Source: Polyangiaceae bacterium (lineage in GTDB: Bacteria > Myxococcota_A > Polyangia > Polyangiales > Polyangiaceae). From it: a stretch of DNA of 42,261 nt. The stretch lies in NCBI GenBank assembly GCA_020846005.1, contig JADLEQ010000051.1, positions 1 to 42,261 on the forward strand, given 5' to 3'. Of the stretch, positions 1,743 to 42,179 are shown piece by piece. The position numbers and the translations under genes were made by a program. The notes under the pieces were generated by a model. It had not been told where the DNA came from, ran no database searches, and was given only the letters and a program-made list of their open reading frames with translations. Position 1 is the stretch's first letter. Each line of letters starts with the position of its first letter.

Positions 1743-4550
1743 TCAACGCCCCGCGGCGGGCCGACGCTCCACGTCGCCCTCGCCTCCTCGCGCGCGGACG
1801 CGCGCGAGCGCCGCGCGCTCCTCGTCCGTGAGCTCGGTGCGCTGCTGGCCGCGCATCCAGCGGACCATCTGCGCGTCGATCCCGGGCTGATCGTCGACGT
1901 CCTCGTATCGCCACAGCTCGGCGAGCGCCTGCTCGGCGGCGGTCGCGCCGACCGCACACCCGAGCGGCCAGCCGTGGGGCTGGTAGGACCACGGGGAGTA
2001 GTCCGGGGTCGACGTGAAGGCGTCGAGCGGCAGCGCAGCGTTCTGTACCTGCACGTTCGGGTACGGCAGGCCGAACAGGTGCGCAACGAGTTTGTGGAGG
2101 CTGGAGGCGCTCACGTGCGTGCGTGACACGTACCCGCGCTTCACCCACGGGGAGACGAGCACCGTCGGGACACGGTGGTAGTCCACGCTGTCGCCGCCCT
2201 GCTGCGGGTCGTCCTCCGTGATGATGACGAGCGTCTTCGCCCACAACGGGCTGCGCGAGAGGGCGGCCACGAGCAGCCCCGTCGCCTCGTCGTTCACGGC
2301 GTTCATCAGCTCCGGCGTGGGCGAGCTGGGCGAGAGGCCGAGGCCGTGATCGTTGGGGAACGTCACGTACGAGAACCGGGGCAGGTTGCACAGCACCCGC
2401 GCTCTCGCGGCGAGGTGGCACGCCTTCTCCGTGTCGGGGTACCCGATGTTCTGGAAGGCCCCGCCCGGGTACAGGAGGTCGACGGGCGTGGGGCTCGGGA
2501 GCGGGGAAGGCAGCCCCACGACCTCACCGAAGATCCCGTAGGGCACCGCGTGGGCGCCCAACCAGTCGAAGACCGAGCCCTCGTCCGGCCGGCTGATGTC
2601 GCCGACGGCGCACCCGGCCACCTCGCGGACGTCGTTGGCCCAGTTACGCTCGCAGTAGTCCGTCGTGCGGCCATGGGTCGTCCACGCGTGGCCCTGCTTG
2701 CTGGCGTCGGCGTCGTTGTAGCTGTTGTCCAGGTTGGTGAAGTCCCGAGCCAGCGAGCGGGTGTTGCCGAAGACGCGCTCCATCTCATCGGTGGACGACT
2801 TCAGCGTGAGCGACGGGTTCCCGCTCGCGCCCGGCAGGTCCCCGAACAGAGCGTCGTACGTCTTGTTCTCTCGGACCACGAAGAGGACGTACTCGATGCG
2901 GGGCGAGGGTCCCTCCTCGTTGGTCGCGGGGACCGGGAAGTCGGCGGCCCCCGCCGGGCAGTCGATCGCGGGCGCGCCGGGCAGCCGGTGGACCTGCACC
3001 GCGCGCTCGACGGCGTCCGCCCCGGCCTGGAGCGCGGCGGTGTCCGGTCGCGCGATCCACTGCACCGCGCCGCGCTGCGGGCGCTCCTGCTGCCCGCCCT
3101 CGACCGGCCCCGGTCCGTTGCCGCGCAGGCTCGCGACGGCGACGTCGCCGGCCGGCGACACCGCGACCGCGCTGGGCCACCAGCCCGTCGGCAGCCGACC
3201 CGCGAGCGAGAGCGCGGGCGCGCCGCCCGAGAGATCGACGTTCCAGGCGGAGACGGCGTTGATCCCGGACATCGTCCCGTAGAGCACGCCGCGCGTGGCG
3301 TCCCACGCGAGCGATGACAAATCCTGCCCCCGGAGGCCCGGCTCCCACTCGACCTGCGCCGCGGTGCTCGTACCGGCGATCCGATCGATGAAGGTGAGCG
3401 TCTCGCCGAGACCATTGCCGACCACCATCCAGCGCGCGTCCAGGAACGCGATGCCCTGGGGGCTCTTGTCCGTGTCGACGCTCCGGGTCGCCGCGCCGCC
3501 CGGCGCCGCCCCCACGTCGATCTCCGCCACGCGACGCGCGCCCCACAGAGAGATCCACGCGCGGCGCCCCTCCGGATCGAACGGGTCGAACCACACGCCG
3601 AAGCTCTCGTTGGCGCCAACCTCGATCTCGGAGACGACCGCGCCGTAGGTCGCGCCCGGCGTCACGTCGAGGACGACGGCGGTCGGCGCCGTGACGGAGC
3701 CGACGGCGACGCGCTGCAGCACCGGGGACACCGCGACCCCCGACGCGTAGCGCGCAGAGCCGCTCGGGTTCGGCGGCAGCGGGATGCTCCGCGCCTCGTC
3801 GCGCGCGAGCTGCCCGGTCGCGGTGTCGAACGAGAGCGCCTCCAGCTTGCCGTCACCCGCGACCAGCACGAGATCCGGCGCGACGAACGCGACGCCGGAG
3901 TTCACGTAGGTGCCCTTGGGGAACGCGACGTGGCTGGTCACCGCCCCGGGCGTGCCCACGGCCTGGACGTCGATCGCGCGGACGCCGTGGCGCTCCGAGC
4001 CCGTGCTGACCGCGAGCGCGAAGCGGGTACCGGGCACGAGGATCAGGTGCGACACTTGATCGCCCTCGAGATCCGCCTCGGTGAACACCGAGTAGGCGCC
4101 GGACGGTCGCGTGACGCGACCGTCCGGGAGCACCCACTGCCCGGCGGCGTCCGGATCGGGCCCAGCGTATTTCGCGGCGTCGCCCGTGGGTAGCGTCGCC
4201 GTGCAGCGGCCGGGCTCGGGGCTCGGGAAGGTGCCGTCCCACGCGGGGCACTCGGGCGCGTGTGGGATGCTCTCCCAGGGCCGCGCCGCCGGGCACTCGT
4301 ACGGGACCTCGCTCTCCGCGCAGGCGTCCGCCGGGCACGAGAACGAACACGACTTGGGCGCGTACGTGAAGTCATCGATCGAGCCCACCGCGCCGCCGGC
4401 CCCGCCCCCCGCTGCCCCGGCCGCGCCGGCGGCGCCGCCCGTCGCCGCGGCGCGCCGGGCGCCGTCGTCCTCGTCGCCGCAACCCGCGACCCACGCGCAC
4501 ACCGCGCCGACCATCCCGACCGAGAGCGCGAACCTGGAGCGACGAGCCAT
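1743..4550 (-). CDS. YncE-like beta-propeller / phosphoesterase-family lipoprotein
   Basis: A protein of 935 residues. ATG 4550 gives an N-terminus with basic residues, a hydrophobic segment and lipobox VAGC (Cys 24); the longer upstream frame has no signal and is rejected. A Gly/Ala linker follows, then about 400 residues resembling a surface-layer or YncE-type beta-propeller, then a phosphoesterase domain (about residues 555-890) of the acid phosphatase/phospholipase C-like family, recognisable by VVRENKTYDALFGDL, a GHAWTTHG motif, ITEDDPQQGGDSVDYHR and SPWVKRGYVSRTH. The likely role is an envelope-anchored phosphatase or phosphodiesterase; the substrate is unknown. A paralogue with the same layout lies at 5750-8326, with a CAP-domain lipoprotein between them, all on the minus strand. 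Confidence 0.88.
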   Translation of the reverse strand: MARRSRFALSVGMVGAVCAWVAGCGDEDDGARRAAATGGAAGAAGAAGGGAGGAVGSIDDFTYAPKSCSFSCPADACAESEVPYECPAARPWESIPHAPECPAWDGTFPSPEPGRCTATLPTGDAAKYAGPDPDAAGQWVLPDGRVTRPSGAYSVFTEADLEGDQVSHLILVPGTRFALAVSTGSERHGVRAIDVQAVGTPGAVTSHVAFPKGTYVNSGVAFVAPDLVLVAGDGKLEALSFDTATGQLARDEARSIPLPPNPSGSARYASGVAVSPVLQRVAVGSVTAPTAVVLDVTPGATYGAVVSEIEVGANESFGVWFDPFDPEGRRAWISLWGARRVAEIDVGAAPGGAATRSVDTDKSPQGIAFLDARWMVVGNGLGETLTFIDRIAGTSTAAQVEWEPGLRGQDLSSLAWDATRGVLYGTMSGINAVSAWNVDLSGGAPALSLAGRLPTGWWPSAVAVSPAGDVAVASLRGNGPGPVEGGQQERPQRGAVQWIARPDTAALQAGADAVERAVQVHRLPGAPAIDCPAGAADFPVPATNEEGPSPRIEYVLFVVRENKTYDALFGDLPGASGNPSLTLKSSTDEMERVFGNTRSLARDFTNLDNSYNDADASKQGHAWTTHGRTTDYCERNWANDVREVAGCAVGDISRPDEGSVFDWLGAHAVPYGIFGEVVGLPSPLPSPTPVDLLYPGGAFQNIGYPDTEKACHLAARARVLCNLPRFSYVTFPNDHGLGLSPSSPTPELMNAVNDEATGLLVAALSRSPLWAKTLVIITEDDPQQGGDSVDYHRVPTVLVSPWVKRGYVSRTHVSASSLHKLVAHLFGLPYPNVQVQNAALPLDAFTSTPDYSPWSYQPHGWPLGCAVGATAAEQALAELWRYEDVDDQPGIDAQMVRWMRGQQRTELTDEERAALARVRARGGEGDVERRPAAGR

Positions 4551-4644
4551 GGCGGCATCATGCCACGGCGCGCCCACCAACGCGTGACGAGCTCGCGGCG
4601 CGCGCCGGCCGCGGCGCGCCCGCCGCCCGGCCGCGCCCCGACCT

Positions 4645-5652
4645 TCACTCACACGCGACGACGCTGACGGTGTACTCGATCGGCTGCTCCAGCCCGCTCA
4701 CCGAGACGACGTACGACGCCCCACCTCGGGCGCTCCATCCCTTCGGGACGACGCGCAGGGCGCGCCACGACCCGTAGTCGTGCGCGAGCTTCTTCACCTG
4801 GACCTCCAGCTCGCGATCCCCCTCGCGCACGACGACCTCCGCTCGATCGAGGTCCAGCGTTTCGCTCTGGATCGACCACCCCACCGAGTCGAGCGGCTCC
4901 CAGATGGGATCGAACGCCTGGAGGGGCACCCGCCCCGGGGGCGGCCAGGCCACGTACGGCGGGTCGGCCGTCCCGTCGCTCTCCCCGACGAGCATGCAGG
5001 AGGCGTCGTCCGTCCCACCGAGCCCGACCGGACCGAGCGCCCCGGAGAGCAGCCAGCGCCGGTGGCCGAGCGTCTTCTCGTTCCCGGGATCCACGAGGTA
5101 GGCGTCGATGCTCTTCACGCCGGGCCCGCCGGAGAGGTTGCTCAACCCCGCGTCCTCGGCGGCCTGCTTGGACCAGCACTCCCACCCGCGCGGCGGCTTG
5201 TGCGAGAGCTTGTCGTTCGCGTCCATGAGGAGCGCGCAGCCCTGCGCGCGCTCGTCGAGGTCGGCCCGGTTCACCACCGCGGGGAGCCCCGCGAGCCCGC
5301 GGTAGTAGTTCAACAGCGCGAGCGCGCTCTTGCGCCCGCGCTCCTCGAGCCGGCCCGGATCACACTCCGCCACGCTGCCGGTCCACTGCCCCTCGGTGAG
5401 CGCCGCTCGCACCTCCACCCACCGCTGGCACACCGCCTCGTCGGGGGTGAGGGGCGGCGCCTCGCCCGGCTCCTCCGGCGCGAGCCCCGGCCCGGCCCCG
5501 GCCGCTCCCGGGTTCGCGCCCGCCGCCTGCTCCGCGCCCGGCGCCTCGTCGCGAGACGGCTCCCCGGGCTCTCCCGCGACGTCCGGCGCGCACGCCGGCG
5601 CGGTCGCCAGCAGCAGGGTGGCGAGGAGGGTGGCGGGCGGACGGAACGGCAT
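4645..5652 (-). CDS. CAP (SCP/PR-1-like) domain lipoprotein
   Basis: A protein of 335 residues from ATG 5652. The N-terminus has a basic start, a Leu/Ala-rich core and a probable lipobox ending in PAC (Cys 21); a low-complexity Pro/Glu/Ala/Gly linker follows to about residue 75. The CAP-family core is seen in ALLNYYRGLAGLP, a run with RADLDERAQGCALLM, then LSHKPPRGWECW and the later LGHRRWLLS segment. Bacterial CAP proteins are exported and of uncertain biochemical function. The C-terminal 130 residues resemble a beta-rich add-on domain. The gene lies between two paralogous phosphoesterase lipoproteins on the same strand, with 94- and 97-bp gaps, so co-transcription is possible but not shown. 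Confidence 0.85.
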   Translation of the reverse strand: MPFRPPATLLATLLLATAPACAPDVAGEPGEPSRDEAPGAEQAAGANPGAAGAGPGLAPEEPGEAPPLTPDEAVCQRWVEVRAALTEGQWTGSVAECDPGRLEERGRKSALALLNYYRGLAGLPAVVNRADLDERAQGCALLMDANDKLSHKPPRGWECWSKQAAEDAGLSNLSGGPGVKSIDAYLVDPGNEKTLGHRRWLLSGALGPVGLGGTDDASCMLVGESDGTADPPYVAWPPPGRVPLQAFDPIWEPLDSVGWSIQSETLDLDRAEVVVREGDRELEVQVKKLAHDYGSWRALRVVPKGWSARGGASYVVSVSGLEQPIEYTVSVVACE

Positions 5653-5749
5653 CGGGACGCAGCTCGGCGTCTCCGAAGAACGGCACGCGGGGCCCTGGCT
5701 TGAGCCCGCCGAGACACCGCGCGGCCGCGGGGCGCGGGAGCAGCGGAGC

Positions 5750-36566: not shown

Positions 36567-38684
36567 TCACGGGCTCGCGACGCCGAGCTTCCGGAGCGAA
36601 GCCTCGACCTCGCGCACGAGCGCATGATCGGCCGGGTAGGACTTCCGATAGATGGCGAGCGCGGCGGTGAGCTCGACGATCGCCTCGCGCTTGGCGCCCT
36701 TCGCGGCGAAGGTCTTACCCAGACCGTGGCGGTCGCCGCCCACGTCCGGGTGCTCGGGACCGAGCGCCTTCTCGTGGATCGCCAGCGCGCGCCGCAGCTC
36801 AGCGATGGCGTCGTCGAAGCGACCGAGCTCGCGGAGCACTCCGCCGAGCGCCGCGCGGTCCGATCCGGTGTCCGCGTGCTCGGCGCCGAGCGCGGCTTCG
36901 TCGATGGAGAGCGCCTGCTCGTAGGCGAGGCGCGCGTCCTCCCACTTGCGCTGCTCCTCGAGGACGCTCCCCTCGCTCAGCCAAGCCGCAGCGACGTGAC
37001 GGTGACGCGCACCGAGCTTGGCCGCCCAGATCGCGCGGGCTCGGCGGAATTCCGCGAGCGCGTCCTCGAGCCGGCCGAGCGCCCTCAGCGCGGTGCCCAC
37101 GTTGTTGTGCCCCGCTCCCACCTGCGGGTGGTCCGGCCCCAGCGCCTGCCCCGCGATCGAGAGCCCCGCGCGGAACTCGGCGAGCGCCTCCTCGTGCCGA
37201 CCGAGATCACTCAGGACGGCCGCCACGTTGTTGTGACTCGCCCCGACCTCCGCGTGCCCGCGGCCTAGCGTCTGCTCCCGCAGGAACAAAGCCCGTCGAT
37301 GCGCCTCGAGCGCCCGCTCGTAGTGACCGACCGCGCGCTCGAGGTTGCCGATCAGCGAGAGCGTCTTGCCGACCAGCGGGTGATCACGCCCGAGCGCCGC
37401 CTCCCGGATCTCGAGCGCACGCCGCGCCTCGCCGAGCGCGTCGTCGTAGCGACCGAGTTGCTCCAGGACGGCGGCGAGCTGGTGGCGGCCCGTGCCGGTG
37501 TCGGGGTGAGACGCCCCGAGCGTCTTCACCCAGAGATCGAGCGCCGCGCGCAGCTCGGCGAGCGCGGCCTCGTAGTGCCCCTGCGCCGTCAGCACGCTGC
37601 CGATGCCGCTCCTCGCCTTGGCGAGCCAGTGGTGCTCCGCGCCGAGGGTCTTCTCCCAGATGGCGAGCGCCCGACGGTACTCCTCGAGCGCAGCGTCGTG
37701 TCGCCCCATGGTCGCGTGCACGTTCCCGAGGCTCAGGCGGACCATCCCGGCCTCGACGTGTTCGGCCCCGAGCTTCGCCTCGACGAGGGCGAGCGCCTCG
37801 CGGTGCAGCGCGACGGCGTCGTCGTACTCACCCAGCCGCCACGCCACGTCCCCCAGCCCCGAGAGCGCGGCGGCGACGCCCACGGCGTTCGCGTCCCTCT
37901 CGTAGAGCGCCTTGGCTGCGCCGAGCTTCTCGCGAGCTTCGCGGTACTTGCCCTTCTCCTCCAGCGAGCGCCCCTCCTTGAGGAGCGCCTCGGCGACCTC
38001 ACGACCCACGCCGGCACGCTCGGCCGCCTCCCGCGCCTCTCTCGCCGCCTGCGCCGCCTCGGCCGGCTTCCCGGTGGCGAGCAGGCCCGAGGCGCGCGCG
38101 GACGCATCGCGCGCCCGCTCGAGCGCCGCCGCGTCGCGCGCGGTACCGTGCGCACGATAGCCGGCGTACACGGCCTCCTGGCGGCAAGCGCTGAGCGAAC
38201 GCGCGAGATCGGCGACGGCGTCGGCGGCCTTCTCCGCGGTCTGCCGATCGGCGCGGGCGAGCAGGGTCGCGAGCGCCCGCTGACGGCTGAGCGCCTCGTC
38301 GTAGCAGGCTGTCATGGCCACGTAGGTCTCCTCGGGCGTGACCTTGCGCACGACGGCGTCCATGCACGCGCGCTTCGACAGCATCGCCCAGTCGCGTGAG
38401 ATGTCGTCCATCTTGGTCACCACGAGATCCGCGGTGCTGGCCGCGAACTCGGCCCCCATCCCCGCGAACGCGTGATGAACCTCGGCGCGCGCCTCCGCGC
38501 TCCACGCCCGCTGCACGTCGAGCTCGAAGTCGTCGCAGGGTCCGCGAGCCGGCGCGAGCAGCGTGGGGCGCTCCGGCCCGCAGCCGAATCCGATCAGAGG
38601 CGCCGCGCAGAGTGAGGCGCCGACCACCCGCCGCCGCAGCCCCCTTGCCGGGCGACGGGACCCACGGGCGTCACGCTGCGACAT
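36567..38684 (-). CDS. TPR lipoprotein resembling the ectodomain of myxobacterial kinases
   Basis: A protein of 705 residues from ATG 38684, with a basic n-region and a probable lipobox IGFGC (Cys 35). A domain of about 130 residues follows with Cys and Trp residues, including CDDFELDVQRAWSAEARAE and KRACMDAVVRKVTPEE, resembling the region between the transmembrane helix and the TPRs of many Polyangia Ser/Thr kinases (recalled pattern). From about residue 250 there are about ten 42-residue kinesin-light-chain-type TPRs with repeated LGAEH or LGRDHP motifs. There is no kinase domain. It probably mediates protein contacts in the periplasm. Confidence 0.75.
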   Translation of the reverse strand: MSQRDARGSRRPARGLRRRVVGASLCAAPLIGFGCGPERPTLLAPARGPCDDFELDVQRAWSAEARAEVHHAFAGMGAEFAASTADLVVTKMDDISRDWAMLSKRACMDAVVRKVTPEETYVAMTACYDEALSRQRALATLLARADRQTAEKAADAVADLARSLSACRQEAVYAGYRAHGTARDAAALERARDASARASGLLATGKPAEAAQAAREAREAAERAGVGREVAEALLKEGRSLEEKGKYREAREKLGAAKALYERDANAVGVAAALSGLGDVAWRLGEYDDAVALHREALALVEAKLGAEHVEAGMVRLSLGNVHATMGRHDAALEEYRRALAIWEKTLGAEHHWLAKARSGIGSVLTAQGHYEAALAELRAALDLWVKTLGASHPDTGTGRHQLAAVLEQLGRYDDALGEARRALEIREAALGRDHPLVGKTLSLIGNLERAVGHYERALEAHRRALFLREQTLGRGHAEVGASHNNVAAVLSDLGRHEEALAEFRAGLSIAGQALGPDHPQVGAGHNNVGTALRALGRLEDALAEFRRARAIWAAKLGARHRHVAAAWLSEGSVLEEQRKWEDARLAYEQALSIDEAALGAEHADTGSDRAALGGVLRELGRFDDAIAELRRALAIHEKALGPEHPDVGGDRHGLGKTFAAKGAKREAIVELTAALAIYRKSYPADHALVREVEASLRKLGVASP

Positions 38685-38813
38685 CGCCGTCGCGAGGTTA
38701 CCCGGATCCCCGAGTGGGCGCACGCGCCTCGGCTCGTGGGCGTGGCCCGCCGGGAGCGGGCCGGAGGGGCTGGCGATCGCCCGCTGCCGTGCCGCACCGC
38801 CCAGGCGGCACGC

Positions 38814-39848
38814 TCACGGCGCCGCCCAGCTGCCGACTGCGTAGGCGGCGACGCCGAGCGCCGCCGACGCCGGCAGCGTCACCGCCCAGGCCAGCGCCAG
38901 GTCACGCAGTGTCCTGCGGTTGAGCGAGGCGCGCCGCGCGCCCGCGCCGATGATCCCACCTGAGGCGACGTGCGTCGTGGACATCGGCAGCCCCAGGGTC
39001 GCGCCGGCCGTGACGAGGGCCGAGATCACGAGGTTCGCGACGAACCCCTGGCGGTGCCCCATGGAGGTGACCCTCACCGCGAGCACGCGCGTCACGCGCC
39101 TGCCCGCGGTGAGGCTACCAGCGAGCATCCCGCCGGCCACCAGCGCGAAGAGCGCCGGCGCCTGGGAGAGGACCCCCGGGCCCGCGAGCGCCGAGGCGGC
39201 GAGCAGGAGGGCCACGATCTTCGGCGCGTCGTTGAGCCCGCGCGCGAAGCTCGTCGCGCCGCTGGTGAGCCAGTGGAGGTGGTCGAGCGTGAGCCGCAGC
39301 GCGTGCGGGCGCTCGGCCGCGCAGCTCACCCGAGCGCCCGCGGCGCCCGCCAGCGGTGGGCGGGCGCGCGGCGCGACTCGCACCAGGATCACGACGGCCG
39401 CCAGCGCCACGAGGGGACTCACCAGGAGCGGCACGAGGATCTTCGCGCCGAGCGCGCCCCACCGGACGCCCTCCACGCCGTACGCGACCGAGGCGACACC
39501 GACGATCGCGCCGACGATCGCGTGCGTCGTCGACACGGGGAGCCCCGTCCGCGTGGCGAAGAGCACCCACAGAGCCGCGCCCGCGAGGGTCGCGGCGGCT
39601 GCGGCGAACGTGGGCGCGGTGCCGACCGCGAGGATTCCGCTCCCGAACGTCCCGACCATCGCGCGGGCGAGCCCCGCGGCCAGCAGCGCACCCGCGGTCG
39701 TCCAGAGGGCGCCCCAGCGGATCGCCCGGCGGTAGTCCGTGACGCCGCTCCCGACGAGCGTCGCGATCCCCTTCGAGACGTCGTTCGCGCCGTTCACGTA
39801 GGCGAGCCCGAACCCGAGCGCACCGACGACGATCGACCAGGCGGTCAC
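38814..39848 (-). CDS. PiT-family inorganic phosphate transporter
   Basis: A protein of 344 residues with about ten hydrophobic segments. The two inverted-repeat signatures are YVNGANDVSKGIATLVGSG near the N-terminus and FARGLNDAPKIVALLL in the middle, plus two PVSTTH or PMSTTH motifs. PiT carriers import phosphate with a metal cation, and arsenate as an analogue. GTG 39848 overlaps the stop of the 114-residue gene (GTGA), which in turn overlaps the ArsM-like gene, so the three are one operon. Confidence 0.9.
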   Translation of the reverse strand: MTAWSIVVGALGFGLAYVNGANDVSKGIATLVGSGVTDYRRAIRWGALWTTAGALLAAGLARAMVGTFGSGILAVGTAPTFAAAAATLAGAALWVLFATRTGLPVSTTHAIVGAIVGVASVAYGVEGVRWGALGAKILVPLLVSPLVALAAVVILVRVAPRARPPLAGAAGARVSCAAERPHALRLTLDHLHWLTSGATSFARGLNDAPKIVALLLAASALAGPGVLSQAPALFALVAGGMLAGSLTAGRRVTRVLAVRVTSMGHRQGFVANLVISALVTAGATLGLPMSTTHVASGGIIGAGARRASLNRRTLRDLALAWAVTLPASAALGVAAYAVGSWAAP

Positions 39849-40189
39849 ACCGCGACCCGCTGGAGGAGCGCCTCACGCCCCCCGAAGCGGCGGGCGAGCA
39901 GCGGATGGAGCCGCGCGATGACGGACGGCCCGATCGCCTCCGCCAGCGTGAGCAGCGCGGGGTCCAGGGCGCGCTGGCAGGCGCAGGGAGCGTCGGCGTC
40001 GAGACGGGAGATCGCCTGCGTGAGGAGGGCTCCTACCCTCTCGGCGTCGGCGCGAGCGACCCCGGGGTCGCCCGAGCCGCGCGCCTCGCCCGAGCGCCCT
40101 CGCCGACGGTCGGCCCGCCGCGCGGTCGGCGAGCTGCCGCGGCAGGACCACGTGCCCCGGCGCCCCGTGCCGACGAACAGCGCGTCCAT
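39845..40189 (-). CDS. Unknown protein of 114 aa between ArsM-like and PiT genes
   Basis: ATG 40189 shares its A with the TGA of the ArsM-like gene, and its TGA overlaps the PiT GTG, so it is translated within the operon. The N-terminal half is Arg/Gly/Ser-rich and without predicted structure; the C-terminal 65 residues form probable helices (RVGALLTQAISRLDAD, LLTLAEAIGPSVIARLHPLL) with a CAC motif between. Third positions are GC-rich throughout. It is not a recognisable PhoU/DUF47 partner. Function unknown. Confidence 0.6.
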   Translation of the reverse strand: MDALFVGTGRRGTWSCRGSSPTARRADRRRGRSGEARGSGDPGVARADAERVGALLTQAISRLDADAPCACQRALDPALLTLAEAIGPSVIARLHPLLARRFGGREALLQRVAV

Positions 40190-41226
40190 CAGCAGCAGCC
40201 GCCGGTGCCACCGCCCGTCGCACAGGTAGCGTCCGCGGCCTCCGTGGTGACCCGGTAGTCCGCCCCCTTCGTCTCGCGCGGGTCCCGCCGCATCGCTCCC
40301 GGCGCGCACGAGAAGCGGAACGGTCCGCGGTACACGATGGAGTGCTCCTGGTCGAGGCACGGGCCCTCCTTGCCCTCGAACGCGACGACCGTGACGCTGC
40401 GGAGCTCGATCCCCTCCACGGTGCGCCAGGGCGCGTCCTGACGCTCGAGGAGCTCGACACCGCAGAGGCCAGCCTCCTCGAGCGCCCGGAGGAAGAGGTC
40501 CTCGCGCAGCGCGCCCGCGATGCAGCCGGTGCACAGCTCGGCGTGGCGCCGTAGGTGCGGGGGAGCGTCCTCGTCGCTCACGATGTCGGAGATCACCGCG
40601 CGCCCGCCGCGCCGCAACACGCGGTGGAGCTCGGCGAACAGCTGGCGCTCGGCGTCGGGTTCGACGAGGTTCAGCGCGCCGCTCGAGACGACGGCGTCGA
40701 CCGAATCGCTGGCGACCCGCGGCGCGGTCGCGCGCAGGCGGCCGGCGTCGTGCTCGAGCGCGGCGAGGGCGTCGGACGGGCTGACCGGACGCTCCGCGAG
40801 GAGCGCGTCGAGCCGGTCGAGGCCCAGCCCGAGGTCCTGGAGCCGCCCGCGGCGGGACTCCACGTTCGAGTGCCCAACGCGACGGGCGACCTCCGCGGCG
40901 TGGCGGCGCGCCAGCGCGGGCAGCTCGTGGTTCATGTCGACGCCGATGACCTGGGCGGTCGGACCGACCACCTGGCCCGCGAGGAAGCACGCCTTGCCGG
41001 AGCCCGACCCGAGGTCGAGCACCGTCTCACCGGGGCGGAGGTGCCGCGTCGGGTCGCCGCAGCCGTAGTCCTGCTCGAGCACCTCGTCCGGGATCGCGGC
41101 GAGCAGCGCAGGATCGCAGGCGACCGGACAGCAGAGGCTCTCCTCGCGGGCGCGCGCCGCGCTGGTGTAGCGGGCCTTCACTGCCGGTTCGACGTCGAGC
41201 CGCTCACCAGATGAAGTCGCTGGCAC
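40189..41226 (-). CDS. ArsM-like SAM-dependent methyltransferase with Cys-rich tail
   Basis: A protein of 345 residues. The N-terminus has EESLCCPVACDPALL (Cys 32, 33, 37) and LEQDYGCGDP (Cys 56); motif I is DLGSGSGK (71-78), followed by IGVDMNHE. A later LCTGCIAGAL (Cys 232, 235) matches the CxGCxxGA region of arsenite methyltransferases, and RSVTVVAFEGKEGPCLDQ is typical of the ArsM-like group seen in arsenosugar clusters (recalled). The C-terminus diverges and ends in CATGGGTGGCC. The likely reaction is arsenite (or another soft metal or thiol) methylation. GTG 41226 is chosen because GGAGG lies 5 nt upstream. The gene begins a three-gene overlapping operon with PiT. Confidence 0.78.
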   Translation of the reverse strand: MPATSSGERLDVEPAVKARYTSAARAREESLCCPVACDPALLAAIPDEVLEQDYGCGDPTRHLRPGETVLDLGSGSGKACFLAGQVVGPTAQVIGVDMNHELPALARRHAAEVARRVGHSNVESRRGRLQDLGLGLDRLDALLAERPVSPSDALAALEHDAGRLRATAPRVASDSVDAVVSSGALNLVEPDAERQLFAELHRVLRRGGRAVISDIVSDEDAPPHLRRHAELCTGCIAGALREDLFLRALEEAGLCGVELLERQDAPWRTVEGIELRSVTVVAFEGKEGPCLDQEHSIVYRGPFRFSCAPGAMRRDPRETKGADYRVTTEAADATCATGGGTGGCC

Positions 41227-41236: not shown

Positions 41237-41505
41237 CATCGAGACACCGGTCTCGGTTCTACCCAGCGTCTCGCGTGGCGCCTCGGCGTTACACCGCCGG
41301 GGCCCCTCGGGCGCCCCCCCCTCGCACGCTGGTGTCGGCCTCCGCCGGGCGCCGCGCTCCCCCTAGGGCGGCGCGCCTCGGGCCGTGGGCAGCGCGCGGG
41401 CATCCGACTCGACGGGGCGGGGTGGGCGCGTCACCCTCGCTGCCTGGACTTCGAACGTGAGGTCCTCCGGCGCGGCGGCTCGTGCCGCATGGAGTGTCGT
41501 TGGTC

Positions 41506-41853: not shown

Positions 41854-42179
41854 TCAGCGAGACTCGCTCTCCCACCCGCCCTCCGACCCGCTCCCGCACT
41901 CCCTCCCGCTCTCGCTCTCCCTCCCGCTCTCGCTCCCGCTCTCCCTCTCGCCCCCGCACTCCCTCCCGCTCCCGCCCTCGCTCCCGCTCTCCCTCCCGCT
42001 CTCCCTCCCGCTCTCCCTCCCGCTCTCGCTCCCGCTCTCGCCCCCGCCCTCGCACTCCCTCCCGCCCCCGCCCTCGACTGACTGTGAGTCGGCGATGACG
42101 TCAACTGTTTTGGTCGCGTTTTCTTCGTGGTCGGCCGTGGGCGGGGGGCGTCGGTCTTGGTCGGGGTCTTGCTCGGCAT
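41652..42179 (-). CDS. Possible small basic protein reading into a repeat tract
   Basis: ATG 42179 has GGGAG 6 nt upstream and its first 18 codons after Met have G or C at the third position in 17 cases (MPSKTPTKTDAPRPRPTTKK), so a gene probably starts here. The beginning resembles histone-H1-like Lys/Pro/Thr-rich proteins. After about codon 20 the bias fades, and the frame runs through the polypyrimidine repeat as Arg/Ala/Gly and on antisense over rbfA to 41652, which is unlikely to be the real end. A GTG frame (42186-41854) ends just after rbfA and is more GC3-consistent in the repeat, but its start overlaps the ribosome-binding site. A frameshift or repeat-length change is possible. Confidence 0.3.
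   Translation of the reverse strand: MPSKTPTKTDAPRPRPTTKKTRPKQLTSSPTHSQSRAGAGGSARAGARAGARAGGRAGGRAGGRAGARAGAGGSAGARGRAGARAGGRARAGGSAGAGRRAGGRASLADHSGPGASPSSGRATPSNTKRSSGVRFRSMASASRARRNGVARVSARSTGRRSSSPEARVKWTRAWR
41868..42076. repeat. Polypyrimidine CTCCCG/CTCTCG repeat tract
   Basis: About 209 bp of irregular hexamer repeats (CTCCCG, CTCTCG, CTCCCT, CCCGCT) on the plus strand with very few A, so the complementary strand is nearly all purine with C. In reading frames it gives RS/PR-type, RE/GE-type or RAG-type repeats. It begins just after rbfA and ends before the basic-protein start. It could form triplex (H-)DNA, be a slippage-prone locus, or encode a low-complexity domain. Confidence 0.85.

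What the first reader, a model, noticed from the sequence alone, without database searches (positions are those of the whole stretch)
38814..41226. Overlapping three-gene operon: ArsM-like methyltransferase, unknown 114-aa protein, PiT transporter
Start and stop codons overlap at both junctions (TGATG and GTGA). The methyltransferase has ArsM-like Cys motifs and an extra Cys-rich tail ending in CATGGGTGGCC. A phosphate/arsenate-type transporter in the same transcript suggests arsenic or another soft-element methylation coupled to phosphate uptake or selection. No ArsR, ArsS or pump is present, and the 114-aa protein is unknown.
Basis: partly seen in the sequence, partly recalled or inferred. 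Interest (0 to 1): 0.65.

Follow-up and report, generated by a model that had tools for sequence, protein, structure and literature searches.

The report
Eroded arsenosugar methyltransferase–PiT operon
This three-gene operon is the methyltransferase-and-transporter half of a bacterial pathway for making arsenic-containing sugars, whose other half sits elsewhere in the same genome behind the same predicted switch; here the methyltransferase has lost an arsenic-binding cysteine and the 'unknown' middle gene is the tail of a broken phosphorylase gene.

Summary
The overlapping operon is real. Gene 1 is not a canonical ArsM but belongs to a long ArsM-like family. In Myxococcota, Acidobacteriota and proteobacterial plasmids this family lies beside arsenosugar genes (arsS, TVP38, TIGR04282/TIGR04283 transferases, mtnP). 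Gene 3 is a PiT transporter of a subfamily separate from the housekeeping PiTs tested; PiT lies near this methyltransferase in 15 of 70 loci in three phyla. The 114-aa middle ORF is not a new protein: its last ~57 residues match the C-terminus of MtnP (methylthioadenosine phosphorylase), so it is most likely a 5'-truncated mtnP.

A motif GTAAC-N15-SRGAC occurs 10 times in the 5.7-Mb genome; two copies lie upstream of these two operons. I infer one ECF regulon, now split.

The window's methyltransferase looks eroded or rebuilt: the As-binding Cys (Cys174 of the solved ArsM) is Gly (48/48 relatives keep Cys) and ~51 C-terminal residues are gone. A canonical ArsM elsewhere may supply methylated arsenic. 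PiT substrate and direction are untested. The arsenic context is supported; 'methylation coupled to phosphate uptake' is not shown.

The parts
40189..41226 (-). ArsM-like SAM methyltransferase (345 aa, GTG start), long-ArsM family, with C-terminal ..GTGGCC tail
   Evidence: NF040538 249.7 bits (cutoff 500), PRK11873 152 bits (cutoff 263); 60% identity to full-length homologues of 387-416 aa; tree
40678..40680 (-). codon 183: Gly where 48/48 relatives and the genome's canonical ArsM have Cys (aligned with Cys174 of the arsenic methyltransferase structure 4kw7)
40531..40533 (-). codon 232: Cys where 48/48 relatives have Trp, making C-x-x-C with the retained Cys235 (Cys224 equivalent)
40313..40315 (-). 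junction of the ~51-aa in-frame deletion in the C-terminal region (after residue 304)
   Evidence: alignment A1
39845..40189 (-). 114-aa middle ORF, ATG overlapping the MT stop; its first ~45 codons have a non-coding-like GC pattern (0.73/0.80/0.93)
39884..40054 (-). stretch of the middle ORF (P0002 residues 47-103) homologous to the C-terminal tail of MtnP (S-methyl-5'-thioadenosine phosphorylase)
   Evidence: PRK08931 E=9.7e-4 to profile positions 230-287; 17 of the 19 best foreign places fetched from 282 genomes are MtnP C-termini
38814..39848 (-). PiT-family (PHO4) transporter, 344 aa, arsenic-linked subfamily; the only PHO4 match in the genome
   Evidence: PF01384 199.4 bits; tree
41268..41292 (-). 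predicted ECF-sigma promoter GTAAC-N15-GAGAC, ending ~40 bp upstream of the MT start; the only match in the 42-kb window

Best explanation
The operon is the arsM/PiT half of an arsenosugar-type biosynthesis gene set that is split over two loci in this genome. Inferred order of work: an ECF sigma factor encoded beside arsS, released from its zinc-finger anti-sigma factor, transcribes both operons from GTAAC-N15-SRGAC promoters. An ArsM-type enzyme makes dimethylarsenite; ArsS adds the 5'-deoxyadenosyl group of SAM; a purine-nucleoside (MtnP-like) phosphorylase removes adenine; TIGR04282/TIGR04283 transferases build the sugar; a PiT transporter handles phosphate or arsenate for the pathway. In this genome the set is decaying or rebuilt: the window's mtnP is reduced to its last ~57 codons, and the window's methyltransferase has lost the Cys174-equivalent and ~51 C-terminal residues. 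Arsenite methylation is then probably done by the canonical ArsM on contig 7 and nucleoside cleavage by the MtnP on contig 6. Shown: gene identities, arsS elsewhere in the genome, recurrent MT-PiT and MT-arsS linkage, shared promoter-like motif, missing cysteine, MtnP tail. Inferred: chemistry, regulation, PiT substrate and direction, degree of function left.
For: Same genome has ArsS (TIGR04167 407 bits, cutoff 300) in an operon with a VTT-domain protein, TIGR04282 (146.5, cutoff 134) and TIGR04283 (210, cutoff 182), divergent from ECF sigma and anti-sigma. The homologous ECF/anti-sigma pair (62%/56%) sits directly upstream of MT>PiT in G066. Full-set comparators: Acinetobacter plasmid ArsS>TVP38/FAD>DUF547>TIGR04283>TIGR04282>MT>PiT with mtnP abutting on the other strand (its MT is 30% identical); Cupriavidus plasmid PiT>MT>AhpD>ArsS>FAD>TVP38>GTs>MtnP; Acidobacteria L223 ECF>MT>ArsS>PiT>TVP38>FAD>GT>MtnP; G367 MT>PiT>ArsS>TVP38>FAD. 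PiT within 6 kb of MT in 15/70 loci; a rough chance estimate is 0.35% per locus. The 18 PiT rows from MT/ArsS-bearing loci or genomes form a clade (100/99) apart from housekeeping PiTs. Motif: 10 hits in the whole genome, two of them upstream of these two operons; spacer 15 gives 10 hits against 0-2 for other spacers in 495 kb of loci. MtnP tail. Cys loss: 48/48.
Against: The MT itself meets no curated cutoff for any ArsM model, and many family members sit in loci without arsS in view (21 of 44 Myxococcota loci had no marker gene within 6 kb). The wider PiT subfamily also occurs in genomes without this MT (8 of 22). Codon-position GC of the MT is still strongly protein-like (0.78/0.53/0.92), so it is not an old pseudogene. 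The N-terminal ~45 residues of the middle ORF have no explanation beyond leftover sequence. The promoter motif rests on sequence only, and about half of its genome hits are not at obvious promoters.
Confidence: 0.7

Rival explanations
1. The methyltransferase is still active but on a changed substrate: Cys183 was replaced by the new Cys232 (C232-x-x-C235), giving a different thiol site for arsenic, selenium or another soft element.
For: ORF intact with strong codon-position bias; Cys32/33, Cys56, Cys235 and the Cys-rich tail kept; W232, invariant in 48/48, became Cys in the same protein that lost C183.
Against: Other near-invariant sites also changed (L103P, K284E, G91A) and ~51 residues are gone, which looks like relaxed constraint; an outlier for its clade (10 substitutions at 81 near-invariant sites; median of relatives 0).
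Confidence: 0.15
2. The MT gene is simply a decaying relic and the operon persists only because it carries the genome's only PHO4-family PiT transporter, now the housekeeping phosphate permease.
For: Only one PF01384 match in the genome, while the other same-genus genome G001 has only a housekeeping-type PiT; mtnP is already a stub; the MT lost a residue that ArsM enzymes need.
Against: An ECF-type promoter motif shared with arsS remains upstream of the MT; the MT frame is open with protein-like composition; other phosphate systems such as Pst were not searched for.
Confidence: 0.25
3. Arsinothricin-type biosynthesis (ArsM methylating hydroxyarsinothricin made by ArsL).
For: Best NCBIfam score is the arsinothricin ArsM model NF040538 (249.7 bits).
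Against: Half the cutoff (500); full-length relatives also stay at ~330 bits; only 32% identity to the Pseudomonas arsinothricin ArsM; the partner found in the same genome is ArsS; no ArsL or ArsQ in the operon.
Confidence: 0.04
4. The middle ORF is a genuine small protein that bridges methyltransferase and transporter.
For: Overlapping start and stop codons on both sides; open frame.
Against: Its conserved half is an MtnP C-terminal tail; the other half has non-coding-like GC; the other MT>PiT pairs L085 and L086 have no gene between.
Confidence: 0.05

Closest known systems
Arsenosugar biosynthesis gene clusters (ArsM + ArsS TIGR04167, TIGR04282/TIGR04283 transferases, TVP38, FAD oxidoreductase, DUF547)
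   Same: Same methyltransferase family beside ArsS and the transferases in other bacteria; ArsS and both transferases present in this genome over curated cutoffs
   Different: Here split over two contigs; the MT is the long family, not NF038099; mtnP truncated; MT lacks one cysteine; PiT and an ECF regulator are recurrent members that I found described together in no paper of the held library
Canonical arsenite methyltransferase ArsM (PRK11873; solved structures 4fr0, 4kw7, 5evj)
   Same: SAM domain; cysteines aligned with the first (44), 72 and 224 of 4kw7 kept
   Different: Cys174 equivalent is Gly; separate clade; score below cutoff; extra C-terminal tail. The genome has a true canonical ArsM on contig 7 (354 bits, cutoff 263)
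Arsinothricin cluster arsQML of Burkholderia gladioli (PMC8552651)
   Same: Nearest curated MT model; that locus also has an arsR-pitA-aioAB set divergent from arsQML
   Different: Score half the cutoff; no ArsL/ArsQ here; partner is ArsS; PiT sits in the same operon as the MT
PiT (PHO4) phosphate/arsenate transporters
   Same: PF01384 over the full length, NGAND and STTH motifs
   Different: Subfamily separate from housekeeping PiTs of the same genomes with 100/99 support; substrate and direction unknown
MtnP, S-methyl-5'-thioadenosine phosphorylase
   Same: Last ~57 residues, including the C-x-C..AL..A..T tail
   Different: Whole catalytic part missing; cannot be an enzyme on its own

Membership tests
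Arsenosugar biosynthesis gene set | ArsS (TIGR04167) in the same genome | tested here: met
   407.6 bits over cutoff 300 at G000 C59:44918-45826
Arsenosugar biosynthesis gene set | ArsS in the same operon as the methyltransferase | tested here: not met
   None in the window; different contig. Linked in 14 of 44 Myxococcota, 6 of 21 Acidobacteriota and 2 of 5 other MT loci
Arsenosugar biosynthesis gene set | TIGR04282 and TIGR04283 transferases in the genome | tested here: met
   146.5 (cutoff 134) and 210 (cutoff 182), next to ArsS
Arsenosugar biosynthesis gene set | Curated arsenosugar ArsM model NF038099 met by the window MT | tested here: not met
   75.8 bits, cutoff 400; full-length relatives only 128-136
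Arsenosugar biosynthesis gene set | Makes arsenosugars | not testable with these tools
   Needs arsenic speciation of cultures
ArsM arsenite methyltransferase | SAM-binding methyltransferase domain | tested here: met
   PF13847 E=2.8e-16; 4kw7/5evj matches
ArsM arsenite methyltransferase | Four conserved cysteines (44, 72, 174, 224 in 4kw7) | tested here: not met
   Equivalents 32/33, 56 and 235 kept; 183 is Gly
ArsM arsenite methyltransferase | Over PRK11873 cutoff (263 bits) | tested here: not met
   152.2 bits
Arsinothricin ArsM | Over NF040538 cutoff (500 bits) | tested here: not met
   249.7 bits
Arsinothricin ArsM | ArsL and ArsQ in the operon | tested here: not met
   Operon holds only MT, the middle ORF and PiT. 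ArsL was not searched in the whole genome
PiT (PHO4) transporter | PF01384 over gathering score, full length | tested here: met
   199.4 bits, cutoff 33.7, profile 1-350
PiT (PHO4) transporter | Transports phosphate or arsenate | not testable with these tools
   Needs uptake assays
MtnP phosphorylase (middle ORF) | Complete ~280-aa phosphorylase with catalytic domain | tested here: not met
   Only the C-terminal ~57 residues match

The most novel reading that the evidence does not exclude
A single ECF sigma factor, encoded beside arsS, controls a scattered regulon that joins arsenosugar synthesis (arsS operon, MT-PiT operon) with a glutaredoxin and a Cys-rich, bufferin-like RiPP precursor followed by an MbnB/TglH/ChrH enzyme, all through GTAAC-N15-SRGAC promoters. 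Arsenosugar making would then be one arm of a general thiol/soft-metal stress response, with a dedicated PiT subfamily as its transporter.
Probability: 0.35. Interest if true: 0.72.

Novelty: new variant of a known kind. Interest (0 to 1): 0.5.

Why it matters
Who makes arsenosugars in soil and sediment, with which enzymes and under what control, is largely open outside cyanobacteria and algae. The data point to a large, unnamed ArsM-like family as the methyltransferase of such clusters in Myxococcota and Acidobacteriota, with a PiT subfamily, an MtnP-type phosphorylase (a candidate for the adenine-removing step) and an ECF/anti-sigma pair as recurrent partners. The promoter motif gives a directly testable regulon. 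The window itself is a caution: this copy should not be taken as a working ArsM.

Tried and rejected
Arsinothricin pathway: rejected on score and partner. Middle ORF as new protein: rejected (MtnP tail; non-coding-like N-terminal half). A frame-shifted MtnP N-terminal part in the other two frames between MT and PiT: one weak, low-complexity match, overlapping the conserved MT tail, judged chance. Direct BLASTP of the middle ORF with the genome's own MtnP gave no significant match, though one of its alignments is the right C-terminal register. The test of the tail with an HMM of MtnPs found by the tail itself (32.7 bits against 7.2 for the best of 5000 shuffles) is circular; I rely on the PRK08931 hit and on what the blind search returned. 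AlphaFold of the MT with only 3 sequences was poor (pLDDT 37) and is not used. The search for related loci in genome contigs gave only three relatives. The phylum search with the PiT alignment missed the window's own PiT (only 5 candidates scored per genome), so its counts are lower bounds. Literature searches for PiT or ECF factors in arsenosugar clusters found nothing in the held library, which holds few papers on the subject. Selection tests on the MT were not possible: the nearest homologues are only ~60% identical.

Full report
WHAT IS IN THE WINDOW. On the minus strand three ORFs overlap head to tail: methyltransferase (MT) 41226-40189, middle ORF 40189-39845, PiT transporter 39848-38814. 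The TGATG and GTGA junctions are exact. Upstream, divergent, lies rbfA (PF02033); downstream, on the same strand, a long ORF at 36567-38723.

THE METHYLTRANSFERASE. Its best curated models are NF040538 (arsinothricin ArsM, 249.7 bits, cutoff 500) and PRK11873 (arsenite methyltransferase, 152 bits, cutoff 263); no cutoff is met. Solved arsenite methyltransferases are found at E=6e-22. Its true relatives are a longer family (53-60% identity, mostly 385-405 aa) found in 56 of 377 phylum genomes and 22 of 347 genomes of the Acidobacterial comparator's phylum. In a tree it lies in this long-MT clade (96/95), apart from canonical ArsMs including the genome's own on contig 7 (99/99), which does meet PRK11873 (354 bits). 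The Cys-rich tail is a family trait.

THIS COPY IS UNUSUAL. The pairwise alignment with 4kw7 puts residues 56, 183 and 235 at positions 72, 174 and 224 of that protein. The essential role of Cys174 and Cys224 in arsenic binding is from my knowledge of that enzyme; PMC8552651 states that most ArsM enzymes have four conserved cysteines required for catalysis. In 48 of 48 long-family relatives and in the genome's canonical ArsM, position 183 is Cys; here it is Gly. W232, invariant in the relatives, is Cys here. K284E, L103P and G91A also break invariant sites, and ~51 residues are missing after residue 304. At near-invariant sites it has 10 substitutions against a median of 0 among relatives. The frame is open and the codon-position GC is protein-like (0.78/0.53/0.92), so the change is recent or the protein is still used in an altered way.

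THE MIDDLE ORF. No Pfam match. NCBIfam gives one match: residues 47-101 to positions 230-287 of an S-methyl-5'-thioadenosine phosphorylase model, E=9.7e-4. I then searched 282 genomes with the last 71 residues alone: of the 19 best foreign places fetched (L140-L158), 17 are C-termini of full MtnP genes. The first 45 codons have GC 0.73/0.80/0.93, unlike coding sequence here; the rest is normal (0.84/0.55/0.91). It is best read as a 5'-truncated mtnP. A full MtnP is on contig 6 (L050).

THE TRANSPORTER. It is the genome's only PF01384 match. PiTs from MT/ArsS-bearing loci or genomes form a clade with 100/99 support, apart from housekeeping PiTs, several from the same genomes. The window PiT groups (100/100) with those of G066, G194 and an Acidobacterium (L208), each near an MT. 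The wider subfamily also exists outside: of 22 phylum genomes with it, 14 have the long MT (Fisher p=6e-8 against the rest, not corrected for relatedness).

NEIGHBOURS ELSEWHERE. I looked at 70 MT loci (44 Myxococcota with the window, 21 Acidobacteriota, 5 others). PiT is within 6 kb in 15, ArsS in 22, MtnP in 3. Telling cases: Acinetobacter portensis plasmid, annotated ArsS>TVP38/FAD>DUF547>TIGR04283>TIGR04282>MT>PiT with mtnP abutting; Cupriavidus KK10 plasmid PiT>MT>AhpD>ArsS>FAD>TVP38>TIGR04283>TIGR04282>MtnP; Acidobacterial L223 ECF>MT>ArsS>PiT>TVP38>FAD>GT>MtnP and L207 with ECF/anti-sigma divergent; Myxococcota G367 MT>PiT>ArsS>TVP38>FAD. Burkholderia glumae has ArsS, MtnP, both transferases and a sigma/zf-HC2 pair in one stretch, without this MT in view. 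MT, MtnP and PiT are thus recurrent members of arsenosugar-type clusters.

THE MISSING HALF. The same genome has ArsS on contig 59 (407 bits, cutoff 300), followed by a VTT-domain protein, TIGR04282 and TIGR04283, divergent from an ECF sigma factor and an anti-sigma factor. In G066 the homologous pair (62% and 56%) lies directly upstream of MT>PiT. I compared upstream regions and found GTAAC-N15-(G/C)(A/G)GAC before the window MT (41268-41292), before own arsS, and twice in the G066 locus. In 495 kb of loci spacer 15 gives 10 hits; the other spacers from 10 to 21 give 0-2. The motif was read off four of those ten. The whole genome has 10 hits, reversed control 1. Besides the two operons, three hits lie at starts of a glutaredoxin, a Cys-rich small protein followed by an MbnB/TglH/ChrH enzyme, and a small membrane-type protein; one lies inside the ECF gene, where its sequence codes for part of the protein; the rest are not at clear promoters. 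In two Acidobacteria the motif also occurs next to ECF genes. In other genomes the motif is not more frequent than its reversed control, so only its position carries weight. I infer, not show, one ECF regulon.

HOW IT LIKELY WORKS. By established arsenosugar chemistry (ArsM and ArsS act in the first steps, ArsS adenosylating arsenic; cited in PMC8552651 and PMC12159101), the set would make an arsenoriboside; MtnP-like phosphorolysis is a natural step for a 5'-modified 5'-deoxyadenosine (my inference). PiT may bring in arsenate or phosphate. In this genome the window MT is probably impaired for arsenite, with the canonical ArsM and the contig-6 MtnP filling in.

VERDICT. The chemistry is known; new are the recurrent PiT subfamily, the long MT family, the MtnP stub and the predicted ECF regulon.

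Noticed in passing
G000 contig 80, locus L254 (motif 1501-1525 minus; enzyme ORF 91-966 minus): The same promoter-like motif precedes a Cys-rich, signal-peptide-like small protein ending CGQGTCG, followed by an MbnB/TglH/ChrH (PF05114, 307 bits) enzyme: a bufferin-like RiPP that may share the ECF regulon.
   Followed up: partly
G000 contig 90, locus L255 (1208-1501 minus): Glutaredoxin (PF00462) with the same motif a few bases before its start codon.
   Followed up: partly
L052 (Cupriavidus KK10 plasmid) 2411-5660; L048 416-697; L094 start: Bufferin-type genes (Cys-rich small precursor, DUF692-like enzyme, DoxX-like, ECF sigma) beside the arsenosugar cluster in Cupriavidus; similar Cys-rich small proteins also near the MT in two Myxococcota loci.
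   Followed up: no
L183 (NZ_CP096121.1 136000-152000): A complete arsenosugar-type cluster on an Acinetobacter portensis plasmid named pJNE5-X3_NDM-1, near IS3 and TniQ/TniB genes: likely mobile.
   Followed up: no
L043 8270-10485; L209, L213, L216, L220, L222: In several Acidobacteria the long MT is followed not by ArsS but by another radical SAM protein (343 aa in L043, with an O-methyltransferase after it): possibly a different organoarsenical pathway.
   Followed up: no
window 41865-42076: Pyrimidine-rich tandem array (12/18/30/60-bp periods, CCCGCTCTC-like units) just downstream of rbfA.
   Followed up: no
L053 5711-8056 (Staphylococcus plasmid pSBR2): A 43%-identical MT in an arsR-type regulator/permease/MT operon: the MT family also occurs in staphylococcal arsenic-type operons.
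   Followed up: no
G001 (same genus as the window genome): This relative has no long MT, no ArsS over the cutoff, and a housekeeping-type PiT instead, so the arsenosugar set is variable within the genus.
   Followed up: partly
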